A stretch of DNA of 64,000 nt from Hydrogenobacter sp. T-8 (lineage in GTDB: Bacteria; Aquificota; Aquificia; Aquificales; Aquificaceae), in assembly GCF_011006175.1 (NCBI RefSeq), contig NZ_CP048795.1:372001-436000 (forward strand), read 5' to 3'. The notes below the pieces were generated by a model, which searched no databases, was not told where the DNA came from, and saw only the letters and a program-made list of their open reading frames with translations. Positions 2,595 to 54,480 of this stretch are shown piece by piece (within the stretch, counting starts at the first letter, position 1; every line of letters begins with the position of its first letter). Position numbers and translations under genes: made by a program.

Positions 2595-3554
2595 TCAATC
2601 CTCCTTTTCCACGTGTTTGTATACTTTTATAGCCTTTTTGCCACCAAGCTGACCAAGGAAAGCCAGAAGTTTTGGTCTGTCCTGAACCCTGACTTCCAGA
2701 GATTCTCTAAGGGGTTTGTCAAGATATATAATATCTCCTTCTTTAAGTTCCAATACATCGCTAAAATTCATAGTTGTTTTTCCAAGAACTACTTCAAGCC
2801 TTAATGGTATCCTTTGAAAACTCTTAAGTATTTTCTCCTCAAAGTCCTTGTTTTTCATTTCCGGCGATCCCTTTAACACGTCCTTGTAAGGTGCTATAGC
2901 ACTTTCTGGAATTGCCAATTGAACGTTTCCTTCACTACCTTCTATAACAATCGTCAGCTTTAGAAGTATGAGTTTTTCCTTTGCACGATAAACTGTCAGG
3001 AGAGCAGGATTTGTTTCTATTCCAACAGGGTTTATCTTTACATCCATGACAGTTCCCCATGCTATTTCTAATTCTTGATAACAGATATTCAAAAATCTTT
3101 GAATGAGCTTTGTTTCTATACGGGTGAAGTCCCTTCCTTCTATTTTATAGGGCTTTGCGCTACCACCAAATACGCTACTAACCACTATATATATGAGCTT
3201 AGGGTCTATTGCCAGAAGACATGTTCCTCTCAGGGGTTCAATATTAAACAAACCTATGGCACAAGGCACAGGTAGTTTTGCGGTAAACTCTCCAAACCTG
3301 ACGATGCTAAGGCTTTCCTTGAATATACTTGGAATTGTAACCACAAGTGAGGCAAGCCCCCTTCTGAGCCCATTTATCCATCTTTCAAATATAAGCTCAA
3401 GACCCGGAATTCTCCCTGCGGATATATGTTCAAACAGTGAAAGGTCAAGGGGTCTTACCCTTTCCTCTTCTACCTCAGCCCTTTTCTCCTCCTCCTTGCC
3501 AAGCGTCTTAAGTAGCAGGTTAATCTCTTCTTGGCTCAGAAGTTCGTCCGCCAT
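2595..3554 (-). CDS. fliM: Flagellar switch protein FliM
   Basis: 319 residues. The N-terminus has LLSQEEINLLLKTLG, the peptide that captures phosphorylated CheY. The middle domain (about 45-225) is of the CheC type that contacts FliG, and the C-terminal ~75 residues form a SpoA domain like that of FliN. It follows fliF by 2 bp. fliG, which physically links FliF and FliM and usually lies between them, is absent from this window. Confidence 0.94.
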   Translation of the reverse strand: MADELLSQEEINLLLKTLGKEEEKRAEVEEERVRPLDLSLFEHISAGRIPGLELIFERWINGLRRGLASLVVTIPSIFKESLSIVRFGEFTAKLPVPCAIGLFNIEPLRGTCLLAIDPKLIYIVVSSVFGGSAKPYKIEGRDFTRIETKLIQRFLNICYQELEIAWGTVMDVKINPVGIETNPALLTVYRAKEKLILLKLTIVIEGSEGNVQLAIPESAIAPYKDVLKGSPEMKNKDFEEKILKSFQRIPLRLEVVLGKTTMNFSDVLELKEGDIIYLDKPLRESLEVRVQDRPKLLAFLGQLGGKKAIKVYKHVEKED

Positions 3555-3556
3555 GT

Positions 3557-5062
3557 TTAGCCTTTACTCCTTAACCAGCTCTTGATTATCTTTGCAACCT
3601 TTTCTGGTTCTTCTTTCGCTGTTTTTACTATGGCTTCCACCGCTTCCACCTTTTCCGCCTTTATTCTTATCTCTTCAGCACCCTCTATAACCTCAAGGGT
3701 GGGTGCACCTGGAAGGACTGGAACTGGCACAACTTCCTTTCTTCTAAGAAGCCTTCTTAAGACAAGTAGGGCTATTATGCTTGCGGTAAGCACTAGAAAA
3801 ACAAGAAGACCAAGTTTTACATACTTTTCATAGTCTGGTGTAGGTTTTTCAAAGGGTGGTTTCTGGAAGGGTATGGCTTCTACAGTTAGCACATCGCCTC
3901 GCTGGGGGTTTATTCCTGCTGATGCGGACACTATCCTTTTGACCTTTTCCAAGTCAAGGTTCTTTATGTTTGCATCTACAATAACTCCCACGCTGAGCCT
4001 TTTGACCTTTATCATCGGGTCAACGCTGTAGACCTCCTTCTTACTAACTTCGTAGTTTGTTATGGTTTCGCTCTTTTCAGTGAGAACTTGACCTGCTCCC
4101 ACCACCACACCTGCACCCGGTGGAATATTTGCTTGTGCCCCAGGGACACCTGCACCACCGCCCGTGGTGGTTCTTTCCTTCTTCTTTTGTTGGCTTACCA
4201 CTGCGGTCATGTCTGGGTCATAGATTTCCTCCTTCTGTTCCCTCTTGGTAAAATCAAGGTCTGCAGAAACTTTAACCTTTACAGAGCCAAAACCTATAGC
4301 CTCTTCCAAGGCTCTTTGCACTTCTCTTTCAAGCCTTCTTTCAAACTCCGCCTTCAGCTTTAACTCCTTATCGTGGACAGTGCCTTCTGTTTCCTCTAAC
4401 ATGGCGGTAAGATCCCTACCCTTATCGTCCACCACCACCACATTCTTTGGCTTTAGCCTTGGAACGCTAGCAGAAACAAGGTTTCTTATAGCTTTTACCT
4501 GCTCTGGTGTAAGCTCATAGCCCGGTTTTAGTTTTACAAAAACGCTTGCGGTTGGCTCTTCCTCTTCCCTGAGAAAGATAGATTTTTGTGGCATACCTAT
4601 GCTTACCCTCACATCTTCAATACCAGACATTCTCAAGATTGTCCTGGCAAGCTCGCCTTCTACTGCCCTTTTGAAGTTTACCTGATTCTGAAAGTCGGAG
4701 ACGCCTATACCAGTCTTGTCAAAGATTTCATAGCCTACTATCCCCTTACTGGGAATGCCTTTTGCTGCCAGCTTTAGCCTTATATCCCTAACTTGGGGTT
4801 CTGGGACTAGTATACTTTTTCCATCCTGACCGATTTTATAATTCACACCATCTTTGTCAAGCTCCGACATAACTGCAGACATGTCTTCCTGAGAAAGCCC
4901 AGAATAGAGAACCGTATAATTTGGCTTTGTGGCAAGAAGAGCTACTGCCAAGAGAACGCCGAGGGCAAGAAGAGGCACTGCCACAAGGGCAATCTTCTGG
5001 GTTGTGGATAGAGCCAGGAACCTTTCCTTAAGGTTGTTTAAGGCTTCCCTTATGTCCGCCAT
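3557..5062 (-). CDS. fliF: Flagellar MS-ring protein FliF
   Basis: 501 residues with a transmembrane segment near residues 23-45 (IALVAVPLLALGVLLAVALL) and a second near 415-437. Between them lie the YscJ/FliF periplasmic ring-building motifs (NYTVLYSGLSQEDMSAV, with SIGMPQKSIF downstream). The cytoplasmic tail ends VAKIIKSWLRSKG, the region that binds FliG. It forms the MS ring, the membrane base of the flagellum. Tightly packed between fliE and fliM in the operon. Confidence 0.95.
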   Translation of the reverse strand: MADIREALNNLKERFLALSTTQKIALVAVPLLALGVLLAVALLATKPNYTVLYSGLSQEDMSAVMSELDKDGVNYKIGQDGKSILVPEPQVRDIRLKLAAKGIPSKGIVGYEIFDKTGIGVSDFQNQVNFKRAVEGELARTILRMSGIEDVRVSIGMPQKSIFLREEEEPTASVFVKLKPGYELTPEQVKAIRNLVSASVPRLKPKNVVVVDDKGRDLTAMLEETEGTVHDKELKLKAEFERRLEREVQRALEEAIGFGSVKVKVSADLDFTKREQKEEIYDPDMTAVVSQQKKKERTTTGGGAGVPGAQANIPPGAGVVVGAGQVLTEKSETITNYEVSKKEVYSVDPMIKVKRLSVGVIVDANIKNLDLEKVKRIVSASAGINPQRGDVLTVEAIPFQKPPFEKPTPDYEKYVKLGLLVFLVLTASIIALLVLRRLLRRKEVVPVPVLPGAPTLEVIEGAEEIRIKAEKVEAVEAIVKTAKEEPEKVAKIIKSWLRSKG

Positions 5063-51914: not shown

Positions 51915-52524
51915 AAAGCCTATCACCTATGTCTCCTACCCCGGGCACTATGTAGCCCGCAGGGCTAAGCCCCTCATCTAAGCTCAGCAGGAAGAAGTCA
52001 ACCTCAGGGTGTGCGGACATAACCCTTTGAAGTCCCTGAGGGGAAGCGACAAGGTTAAAGACAAGGAGCCTTTTGGGTTTCATAGATTTGGTCTCCTTCA
52101 AGGCAAGGTCTAAGGTGCCACCAGTTGCCAGCATGGGGTCAAGCACCACCACATGTCTGTTTTCCAAAGGTGGAAGCCTTCTGTAGAAGATTTCTGGAGT
52201 GAGGGTATGCTCATCCCTCTTTATGGCAAGAAAGCCCGCCCTTGCCTTTGGCAGTGCCCTTAGGGCACCGCTGAGCATGGGAAGACCGGCTCTGAGTATG
52301 CAAACAAAAACAAACCTGTCCTCCTCCACAAACTCAAAGCTACCCACACCCATAGGCGTCTCAACCCTTTCTGTCTTAAGTGGAAGTTCGCTCAAGATAA
52401 AGGGCATAGCCATTAGGGTTATCTCCTCAAGGAGGCTTCTGAGCCTCTCAGAGGGTGTGTGCTTGTCCCTCACAAGGTTTAGTTTATGTCTTAGCAGTGG
52501 ATGGTCAATAATCTCCAAAGCCAT
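51898..52524 (-). CDS. upp: Uracil phosphoribosyltransferase
   Basis: 208 residues from ATG 52524, with GGAGA 7 nt upstream. ILRAGLPMLSGAL, the PRPP loop VVLDPMLATGGTLDLAL and GVGDIGDRLFT are the Upp signatures. It salvages uracil to UMP. Downstream gene of the rusA unit, overlapping rusA by 20 bp. Confidence 0.94.
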   Translation of the reverse strand: MALEIIDHPLLRHKLNLVRDKHTPSERLRSLLEEITLMAMPFILSELPLKTERVETPMGVGSFEFVEEDRFVFVCILRAGLPMLSGALRALPKARAGFLAIKRDEHTLTPEIFYRRLPPLENRHVVVLDPMLATGGTLDLALKETKSMKPKRLLVFNLVASPQGLQRVMSAHPEVDFFLLSLDEGLSPAGYIVPGVGDIGDRLFTEGL

Positions 52525-52879
52525 GTTCAAATTCTCCAAGCCTTATAAGGGTTCCCTGCTGACCCTTCACCACTCTCTTGAGGGTCCTTACCTCGTATAT
52601 CTGGCTGTCATTCTTTATCACACCACCCTTTTCCAACACATCCCACAGGCTTTTGAGCATGTTATCTATGTCCCTTCTTCTGTGGTTAGGAAGTATAAGT
52701 TCTATATAAACAGATAGTTTTCCCTTAAGTGGCTCGCCCGTGTATTGCTCTCTTATCTCCCAAAGGGCTCTTACCTCCCAGTTTTTTACCCTTGGGGGTT
52801 TAAATACCCTGCCACCCTTCCTTCTTATGTATCTGTTGCTCTTTGGCACAGGAAGCATAGAAAGCCTCAGCTCTATCAT
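52505..52879 (-). CDS. rusA: RusA-type Holliday junction resolvase
   Basis: 124 residues from ATG 52879, close to the 120 of E. coli RusA. Start chosen because the ATG overlaps the stop of the interrupted upstream gene (ATGA) and because LPVPKSNRYIRRKG aligns with the RusA N-terminus; a longer in-frame reading crosses the transposon end. Catalytic acids are visible in RRRDIDNMLKSLWD and GVIKNDSQI. RusA is often phage-borne, but a RusA from Aquifex aeolicus is known to resolve junctions, so a chromosomal role is likely. Confidence 0.9.
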   Translation of the reverse strand: MIELRLSMLPVPKSNRYIRRKGGRVFKPPRVKNWEVRALWEIREQYTGEPLKGKLSVYIELILPNHRRRDIDNMLKSLWDVLEKGGVIKNDSQIYEVRTLKRVVKGQQGTLIRLGEFEHGFGDY

Positions 52880-52945
52880 CTTTTTATAAAAATAAGGCAT
52901 AGGAAAAGTGTAAGCAAAAGACCTAAAAGGTTCATACCCATAGAT
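52876..52945 (-). pseudogene. 3' fragment of the interrupted DUF4149 gene
   Basis: The 70 bp encode SMGMNLLGLLLTLFLCLIFI and KR before a stop, a perfect fourth membrane helix. It is the missing end of the DUF4149 gene whose 5' part lies at 54158-54480. Joined at GGTAT/ATCTATG the two give 393 bp, exactly 131 codons. Its stop overlaps the rusA start. Confidence 0.9.
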
Positions 52946-52951
52946 ATAGTT

Positions 52952-52986
52952 CCTCATCCAATAGAAAAACATTCCACAAGATGAGG
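52952..52986 (-). repeat. Right-end hairpin of the TnpB element
   Basis: On the minus strand CCTCATC (52986-52980) and GATGAGG (52958-52952) pair across a 21-nt loop, ending 6 nt from the element edge and overlapping the tnpB stop. It is in the position of the subterminal palindrome bound by TnpA and the 3' part of the omegaRNA scaffold. Confidence 0.7.
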
Positions 52987-54057
52987 TTTCGCAGGCAAGG
53001 GGACTATAAGCTCCCTTGTGAACCGCATAAGAACATTCCTTGCACCTACGATATCTGCATCTTCCTCATATCCACACCGTAGGCACTTGAAATGTTCCCC
53101 ATTACGGTTCAACTTATCCTTATATCCACACTCAGGACAAGTCCTGCTTGTGTATTGTGGTGGAACTATGTAGGGCTGGACGCCAACTACCTCACATAGC
53201 TCCCTTATCCTCTTTAGAACATACCCATACAACCAGTGGTTAAACCTCCTGTTTACCACCCTACTCCATACTCCACTTTTACCCTTCTTCAAATTCTTTA
53301 ATCCTTCAAGCACTGGAGAAAAACTACCATCTATCACCCTCTTGAGTATTCTGTTTATCTCTGTCTTTAAATAGTGCTTTGCCCTTTTCCATCTTTTTGA
53401 ACCTTGCTTTTTAGGTTCTATCCTCTTTTCTATTATCTCTTTCACCTCTTTACCAAATATCTCTCCTTCTGATGTAGCGATTAACTTCTTGTATCCTATG
53501 TCTATACCCTTTGGTTTTTTACTTTCCAGTTTAATTTCCTTCTCAAAAACCAGTTTTAAATACCACTTACCGTTCTTTTCCAAAATCTCTATATCAGAGC
53601 ACAATTTCCAATCTCTAAAGTAATTGTTAGCATACTCATAGCTTTTGAAAGGGAAAGCAATCCATCTTTGATTTTGAGGGTCTCTCAAGAAGAGCCAAAA
53701 GTCAAAGGAGTTTCTACCTTTCTCAATCCTGTAAAACCTACTGTCAAGTTTTAAGGCAGGCTTTTTTATCAAAGGTTTTTGAGGATTTTTACCTTTTTTA
53801 AGTTTTGAAAAGAAACTTTTAAGGATTGCTTTTGCCTGCTGTAAAGCACAACCAAGATATCTCTTACTTAACCAAGTTTGGTATGGGTAGCTTTTAACAT
53901 GTTTATAGGAAGGTAGTGTTTTAGTTTCATAGCCTACATCTACAAAGTATTGACATGCCTTTTGATATTCGTGCCAGAGGTTTTCAAGAAAGCTTAACTT
54001 GCCTGTATTTGAAAAATCCAGAGAGAAGAGCAGACTTCTTTTGATGCTACTTTGCAT
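52954..54057 (-). CDS. tnpB: RNA-guided nuclease TnpB
   Basis: 367 residues, full length. RuvC-like acids: Asp in GIDIGYKKLIATSEG near 188, Glu in VLEGLKNL near 252 and Asp in YEEDADIVGARNVL near 332. Zinc ribbon TCPECGYKDKLNRNG with FKCLRCG lies before the last Asp. TnpB proteins use an omegaRNA from the transposon right end to cut DNA next to a TAM. The stop codon is 8 nt from the element edge, so the omegaRNA must overlap the tnpB 3' end. Confidence 0.95.
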   Translation of the reverse strand: MQSSIKRSLLFSLDFSNTGKLSFLENLWHEYQKACQYFVDVGYETKTLPSYKHVKSYPYQTWLSKRYLGCALQQAKAILKSFFSKLKKGKNPQKPLIKKPALKLDSRFYRIEKGRNSFDFWLFLRDPQNQRWIAFPFKSYEYANNYFRDWKLCSDIEILEKNGKWYLKLVFEKEIKLESKKPKGIDIGYKKLIATSEGEIFGKEVKEIIEKRIEPKKQGSKRWKRAKHYLKTEINRILKRVIDGSFSPVLEGLKNLKKGKSGVWSRVVNRRFNHWLYGYVLKRIRELCEVVGVQPYIVPPQYTSRTCPECGYKDKLNRNGEHFKCLRCGYEEDADIVGARNVLMRFTRELIVPLPAKPHLVECFSIG

Positions 54058-54146
54058 AGCGGGTTAAAATTTTAATGTCAACCTCCATAAGTGTCAAGGG
54101 GTCTTCACGTTTCCAAATTTCTCTATAAATTTCTATACTTTCAGTG

Positions 54147-54159
54147 ATTAGTTTCTAAT
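54147..54159 (-). repeat. Left-end hairpin of the TnpB element
   Basis: ATTAG-AAA-CTAAT, a perfect 5-bp stem with a 3-nt loop at the element's left edge. It also supplies the early stop codon that ends the truncated DUF4149 protein. Because it touches the flank, part of it belongs to the host site. Confidence 0.55.
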
Positions 54160-54480
54160 ACCGTGCCATCTCATAAAAGCGTCATAGTCTGTGAGCTTCA
54201 GGGAATGGGCGGTTGGAAGCACATAAAAGATATGAATGGCATGAATCAGAAGGTTAAAGAAGGCAAGGACAGGGATTAGCCTTCCGTATTTAAATCCAAG
54301 GAACAAGGTGGTCAGAGAAACCACAAGCCCTATGCCAAAGTATACGGGAAATATCCTCTCCACCACCGCACCTGCCTGTTCCTTTTGAAGCACCCTAAAA
54401 AGAGTGGGAGCAATAAAGAAGCTAAAGAAAGAGCCAAGCCCAAGGTATAGGGAGTTTATAAAGAGTAGAAACTTAAGCAT
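54148..54480 (-). pseudogene. 5' part of a DUF4149 membrane-protein gene, interrupted by the TnpB element
   Basis: As it stands the frame gives 110 residues with three membrane helices (LLFINSLYLGLGSFFSFFIA; IGLVVSLTTLFLGF; IPVLAFFNLLIHAIHIFYVL) and stops in the element just after RWHGI. DUF4149 proteins normally have a fourth helix, which is found intact beyond the element at 52876-52945. Host sequence ends at about 54158. The truncated protein may still be made; its start overlaps dapA by 8 bp. DUF4149 function is unknown. Confidence 0.88.

What the first reader, a model, noticed from the sequence alone, without database searches (positions are those of the whole stretch)
52926..52945. Predicted TnpB guide and TAM can be read from the insertion
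In this family the omegaRNA runs through the transposon right end, and the guide is the adjacent host DNA; the TAM equals the sequence left of the insertion. Here the guide would begin ATCTATGGGTATGAACC (minus strand from 52945) and the TAM-side sequence is ...CGGTAT. Together they are exactly the empty DUF4149 site, so the nuclease should cut alleles that have lost the element. Only 8 nt separate the tnpB stop from the edge, so most of the omegaRNA must overlap the tnpB 3' end.
Basis: partly seen in the sequence, partly recalled or inferred. Interest (0 to 1): 0.75.

Follow-up and report, generated by a model that had tools for sequence, protein, structure and literature searches.

The report
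TnpB guide RNA and target motif

Summary
Joining the flanks (CACGGTAT + ATCTATGGG) restores the DUF4149 frame and matches the uninterrupted site in 13 aligned relatives. The guide (52945-52926, minus strand) and left-flank motif are as stated.

Predicted TAM: GTAT.

Related elements with the same left end carry an IS607 serine transposase, so this is a tnpA-less IS607-type element, not IS200/IS605. The last two letters of the apparent right end (AT, 52947-52946) are probably host-derived.

A ~258-nt omegaRNA scaffold (53203-52946, minus) lies almost wholly inside tnpB. It folds far better than shuffles (z = -7.8), covaries strongly, and its ACUAU 3' end can pair with an AUAGU loop (pseudoknot), which fixes the guide register.

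Relatives also carry ~275-bp tnpB-less mini-elements that keep this RNA behind their own promoter.

No intact Y1 or serine transposase was found in this genome, so likelier targets are incoming or sister empty alleles than alleles that excised the element. No RNA or cleavage data exist.

The parts
   Evidence: Flank join equals empty site in relatives; boundary refined with G080 copies and an empty sister site
54160..54161 (-). GT, left-flank half of the target; with AT at 52947-52946 it makes the GTAT target and predicted TAM
   Evidence: 15 of 18 element left ends follow GTAT, 3 follow GTGT; pre-insertion site of copy C reads GTGTAT and of a G080 copy TAGTAT
52946..52947 (-). AT after the crossover, inferred host-derived but counted as the last two letters of the omegaRNA scaffold
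   Evidence: G080 left junctions read GTGT while right junctions and sister sites read AT; pairs in the pseudoknot
54128..54159 (-). Left end with ACTAATCACTG...ATAG motif, shared with autonomous IS607 elements
54069..54097 (-). Promoter-like TTGACA-17-TAAAAT upstream of tnpB (11 of 12)
   Evidence: the number of promoter-like sites in the region does not exceed shuffles, so only position and quality support it
52954..54057 (-). tnpB, 367 aa; RuvC motifs GIDIG (184), VLEGL (249), DADIV (333) and CPEC/CLRC zinc ribbon present
   Evidence: dN/dS 0.10-0.25 among the three genomic copies, by method
52946..53203 (-). Predicted omegaRNA scaffold, about 258 nt, almost all inside tnpB
   Evidence: fold z = -7.8, same topology as the tnpB-less RNA; the 5' limit is inferred
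53162..53203 (-). 5' stem-loop with GUAGUUGGCGUCCAG
   Evidence: sequence kept in mini-elements
53143..53147 (-). GCAGG, 5' side of the helix closing the multiloop (partner CCUGC 52991-52995)
52991..52995 (-). CCUGC, 3' side of the helix closing the multiloop
52996..53018 (-). Hairpin 1; its loop holds AUAGU
   Evidence: 4 of 6 pairs with double changes, 91% of cells paired
53003..53007 (-). AUAGU loop, pseudoknot partner of the 3'-terminal ACUAU
   Evidence: 93.8% of cells paired in 26 distinct sequences
52952..52986 (-). Terminal hairpin 2, up to 15 bp
   Evidence: 8 of 12 outer pairs with double changes, 93.3% of cells paired
52946..52950 (-). ACUAU, 3' end of the scaffold
   Evidence: compare ISDra2 pseudoknot (PMC10097598)
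52926..52945 (-). Predicted 20-nt guide AUCUAUGGGUAUGAACCUUU (host DUF4149 sequence)
   Evidence: register set by the pseudoknot, not by RNA data
54160..54480 (-). DUF4149 gene cut by the insertion; loses about its last 22 residues
52505..52879 (-). rusA; relatives start it at the ATG whose first base is near 52879, so the longer 155-aa ORF start inside tnpB is spurious

Best explanation
This is a non-autonomous (tnpA-less) IS607-type insertion. It entered a GTAT site in DUF4149 by crossover between GT and AT. Its tnpB transcript is expected to be trimmed to a ~258-nt omegaRNA scaffold ending ...GGAACUAU plus a guide read from the flanking host DNA (AUCUAUGGGUAUGAACC...). TnpB loaded with it should cut DNA carrying GTAT followed by that sequence, which is the element-free DUF4149 allele, and repair from the element-bearing copy would restore the element. 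Shown by sequence: empty site, recurrent GTAT, RuvC motifs, conserved RNA structure, left end shared with IS607 elements. Inferred: transcription, processing, cleavage, repair.
For: Exact empty site in relatives. GTAT before 15 of 18 element left ends and in two pre-insertion sites. TnpB family and RuvC motifs. dN/dS 0.10-0.25. Covariation: 90.5% of cells paired, 0 of 500 shuffles as high, slid controls 39-52%. Fold z = -7.8. Pseudoknot at the scaffold 3' end as in ISDra2 omegaRNA (PMC10097598). Fixed right-flanking letters taken into the scaffold, as in ISXfa1 (PMC10711439). Same left end upstream of an IS607 TnpA and TnpB in L025 and L030; L025 TnpA matches NF033518. IS607 TnpA N-terminus left between left end and tnpB in two G005 relatives.
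Against: No RNA, protein or cleavage data. In G080 three left junctions read GTGT, not GTAT, which a simple matching-core IS607 crossover does not explain. No transposase able to move the element was found in this genome. The A3 alignment was fitted to the model, so pair counts lean towards it (though slid controls collapse). Synonymous sites are not significantly depleted in the last 255 nt of tnpB. Sister-species empty sites differ from the guide at position 4, so they may escape cleavage.
Confidence: 0.75

Rival explanations
1. Same function but an IS200/IS605-type element moved by a Y1 transposase: the left flank is a fixed target, the right end belongs wholly to the element, and the guide starts at the first base past 52946.
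For: It gives the same guide start; a hairpin lies near the right end; the GTGT left junctions in G080 fit a single-strand mechanism that needs no matching core.
Against: Relatives with the same left end carry IS607 TnpA; IS607 TnpA remnant in L091 and L096; the letters after the right end are fixed (AT/GT), a trait described for IS607 and not IS200/IS605 (PMC10711439); the only Y1 hit in this genome is broken.
Confidence: 0.12
2. A dead relic: the copy is fixed, tnpB is no longer expressed and the guide is a meaningless read-out of the flank.
For: No transposase found in the genome; copy C has lost its left end by deletion; relatives carry decayed tnpB copies.
Against: Three intact ORFs with dN/dS 0.10-0.25; catalytic motifs present; RNA structure kept; promoter-like site.
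Confidence: 0.2
3. The conserved right-end hairpins are DNA sites for the transposase or a transcription terminator, not part of a guide RNA.
For: They sit at the transposon end; hairpins act in IS200/IS605 transposition.
Against: IS607 recombinases act on double-stranded DNA; hairpin 2 has no U-run and was not called a terminator; the pairing of a loop with the 3' end and the tnpB-less copies that keep the whole fold behind a promoter fit an RNA.
Confidence: 0.05

Closest known systems
IS607 TnpB/reRNA of ISXfa1 (PMC10711439)
   Same: IS607 family, fixed right-flanking letter that belongs to the scaffold, pseudoknot at the scaffold 3' end, TAM at the left flank
   Different: ISXfa1 shows a GGG motif and a GG core; here the predicted TAM is GTAT and this copy lacks tnpA. 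The RuvC-I motif here is DIG, of the canonical D-phi-G kind rather than the DPG of the Fanzor-related lineage
IS607 TnpB with RAGATH-18 reRNA, ISFba1 (PMC11061315)
   Same: IS607-linked RNA-guided nuclease of similar size, TAM next to the left end
   Different: RAGATH-18 reRNA lies outside the coding sequence and the TAM is AGGAG or GAGGG; here the RNA lies inside tnpB and no Rfam family reached its threshold
ISDra2 TnpB/omegaRNA (PMC10097598, PMC8612924)
   Same: omegaRNA overlaps the tnpB 3' end, guide is the right flank, pseudoknot uses the last scaffold letters
   Different: IS200/IS605 with Y1 TnpA, TAM TTGAT

Membership tests
TnpB RNA-guided nuclease | TnpB profile match over most of the protein | tested here: met
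   NF040570 109 bits against cut-off 100, residues 24-343; PF07282
TnpB RNA-guided nuclease | RuvC D-E-D and zinc ribbon | tested here: met
   Motifs present; first and last D aligned to solved TnpB; the E was placed by eye
TnpB RNA-guided nuclease | omegaRNA-dependent DNA cleavage | not testable with these tools
   Needs an experiment
IS607 element | Ends shared with elements carrying an IS607 serine transposase | tested here: met
   Left end of L025 and L030; L025 TnpA matches NF033518; their right ends were not identified
IS607 element | Own serine transposase tnpA | tested here: not met
   No tnpA in the element and no PF00239 match in the genome; hence filed as a tnpA-less derivative, not an autonomous IS607 element
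IS607 element | Matching core dinucleotide at both junctions | tested here: inconclusive
   TA or AT fits copy A and the pre-insertion site of C; G080 copies read TG on the left and TA on the right
IS200/IS605 element | Y1 TnpA in the element or in a related element with the same ends | tested here: not met
   Only Y1 hit in the genome is broken and lies elsewhere; that Y1 as query found no other Y1 gene in the related loci
RAGATH-18 reRNA | Rfam match above threshold | tested here: not met
   None; only a sub-threshold RAGATH-10 match at 52945-52990, 18.7 bits against 41.2

The most novel reading that the evidence does not exclude
The family has split into nuclease-bearing elements and tnpB-less mini-elements that encode only the guide RNA under their own promoter, so that one TnpB could be served in trans by many dispersed guides, each protecting its own insertion site.
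Probability: 0.3. Interest if true: 0.7.

Novelty: new variant of a known kind. Interest (0 to 1): 0.5.

Why it matters
It gives a fully specified, testable guide, TAM and scaffold for an IS607-type TnpB with a predicted GTAT TAM and an omegaRNA embedded in its own coding sequence, so embedding would not be confined to IS200/IS605. The tnpB-less copies in relatives offer a natural system for asking whether TnpB guides act in trans.

Tried and rejected
Viral collection: no relative; genome collection: one. Rfam: no family above threshold on the element; RAGATH-10 is sub-threshold and absent from copy B and from a mini-element, so not claimed. Constraint on synonymous sites in the last 255 nt: lower dS but not significant at four-fold sites, so not claimed. 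MAFFT misplaced one G080 right flank; read again. The 23-residue tnpA remnant gave no NCBIfam match, being too short; the plasmid search and direct comparison were used instead. A TnpB structure prediction was not run. Literature on trans-acting TnpB guides: searches found no paper on tnpB-less guide-RNA mini-elements in the held library; standalone omegaRNAs have, from memory, been described for IscB.

Full report
Observation. The minus strand from 52945 reads ATCTATGGGTATGAACCTTT, the left flank ends ...CACGGTAT, and 8 nt (GGAACTAT) separate the tnpB TGA from the edge. Uninterrupted DUF4149-rusA neighbours exist in many relatives; in the 13 aligned, the joined flanks fit without a gap and restore the DUF4149 frame. 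Two further copies in the same genome, 91-92% identical in protein, share the edge and then diverge.

The protein. It matches the guided-TnpB model above cut-off and the Cas12f1-like TNB domain; RuvC and zinc-ribbon motifs are present. The three copies differ with dN/dS of 0.10-0.13 (NG86) or 0.18-0.25 (YN00), so the protein has been under purifying selection, even though copy C has lost its left end and about 45 bp of host flank.

Target motif. The left-end motif was searched in the fetched loci without requiring GTAT: of 18 element left ends, 15 follow GTAT and 3, all in genome G080, follow GTGT; 4 further hits were unrelated sequence. For copy C the relatives' uninterrupted sequence reads GTAGTGTAT|TAGCTCC. 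For a G080 copy the sister genome reads TAGTATATTATT while the junctions read TAGT|GTAGGAAC and GGAACT|ATATTATT. The starts of uvrD and mutS2 next to the other two G080 copies are ATG in sister genomes, in line with AT after the crossover. So the target is GTAT, crossed between GT and AT, and the right-hand AT is host-derived. One directly seen empty site carries this inference for G080; the rest is consistent with it.

Transposon family. Left ends of the same design precede an IS607 TnpA and a ~490-aa TnpB in L025 and L030; the L025 TnpA matches NF033518. Two G005 relatives of this tnpB keep the first ~17 residues of an IS607 TnpA between left end and tnpB. A plasmid search with that peptide gave seven hits, six annotated as IS607 transposase and one unannotated; the hits are individually weak (E 1-5), but the peptide matches the very N-terminus of the Rhodothermus and Thermus TnpAs. 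The own genome has no PF00239 match and one broken Y1 gene. I therefore call it a tnpA-less IS607-type element. The unequal G080 junctions remain unexplained under a matching-core crossover.

Guide RNA. The last 265 nt up to the right end fold with z = -7.8. A covariance model of the last 90 nt found 3 copies in this genome and many more in relatives. In 26 distinct sequences 90.5% of cells pair, no shuffle of 500 is as high, and sliding the partners drops this to 39-52%. The terminal ACUAU pairs with the AUAGU loop in 93.8% of cells, and ISDra2 likewise uses its last scaffold letters in a pseudoknot (PMC10097598). This places the scaffold end at 52946 and the guide start at 52945. ISXfa1 also takes a right-flanking letter into its scaffold (PMC10711439). 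The alignment was fitted to the model, so the counts lean towards it.

Mini-elements. Several relatives hold copies without tnpB. L175 and L176 (G009) and L178 (G005) have a left end after AGTAT, the RNA, the right end and a variable flank within 270-275 bp; L175 and L176 carry a perfect TTGACA-17-TATAAT. The 185-nt RNA of L175 folds with z = -10.7 into the same plan as the window's RNA, and 20 of 53 consensus pairs across 11 such RNAs show double changes. No intact close TnpB was found in G005 or G009, so these may be relics or guides used in trans.

Function. Since no known transposase remains in this genome to excise the element, the practical target would be an element-free allele arriving by gene transfer or on a sister chromosome; a gene drive by TnpB has been shown in plasmids (PMC11870625). 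The nearest sister-species alleles mismatch the guide at position 4, and IS607 TnpB can be sensitive to single mismatches (PMC11061315). Expression, processing and cleavage are untested.

Noticed in passing
L175 1612-1888 (-), L176 1297-1573 (+), L178 1443-1714 (+): tnpB-less mini-elements of 270-275 bp that keep left end, full guide-RNA fold and right end; L175 and L176 have a perfect sigma-70 consensus promoter.
   Followed up: partly
L097 (own genome C1:750300-751956): The only Y1 transposase gene found in the genome is split in two, with a tnpB-like stretch on the other strand between the halves.
   Followed up: no
L111 (own genome copy C, tnpB at 2762-3865): Copy C lost its left end and about 45 bp of host flank by deletion but keeps an intact tnpB; it lies in the 3' end of a gene that looks like a flavin reductase.
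   Followed up: yes
L086, L087, L088 (genome G080): Left junctions read GTGT while right junctions and the one empty sister site seen read AT; two copies sit directly before the starts of uvrD and mutS2.
   Followed up: partly
L188, L189, L192, L193, L194 (genome G003): Several contigs end at right ends of the window's own element type, suggesting many collapsed copies in that assembly.
   Followed up: no
L200 1510-1561 (genome G003): A copy of about 50 bp joins the window-type left end (AGTAT|TAGAAACTAA) straight to the terminal hairpin and right end.
   Followed up: no
window 52945-52990, minus strand: Sub-threshold Rfam RAGATH-10 match (18.7 bits, cut-off 41.2) exactly over the terminal hairpin.
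   Followed up: partly
window 52505-52972: The mechanical rusA ORF start inside tnpB is spurious; relatives start rusA at the ATG near 52879, overlapping the DUF4149 stop.
   Followed up: yes
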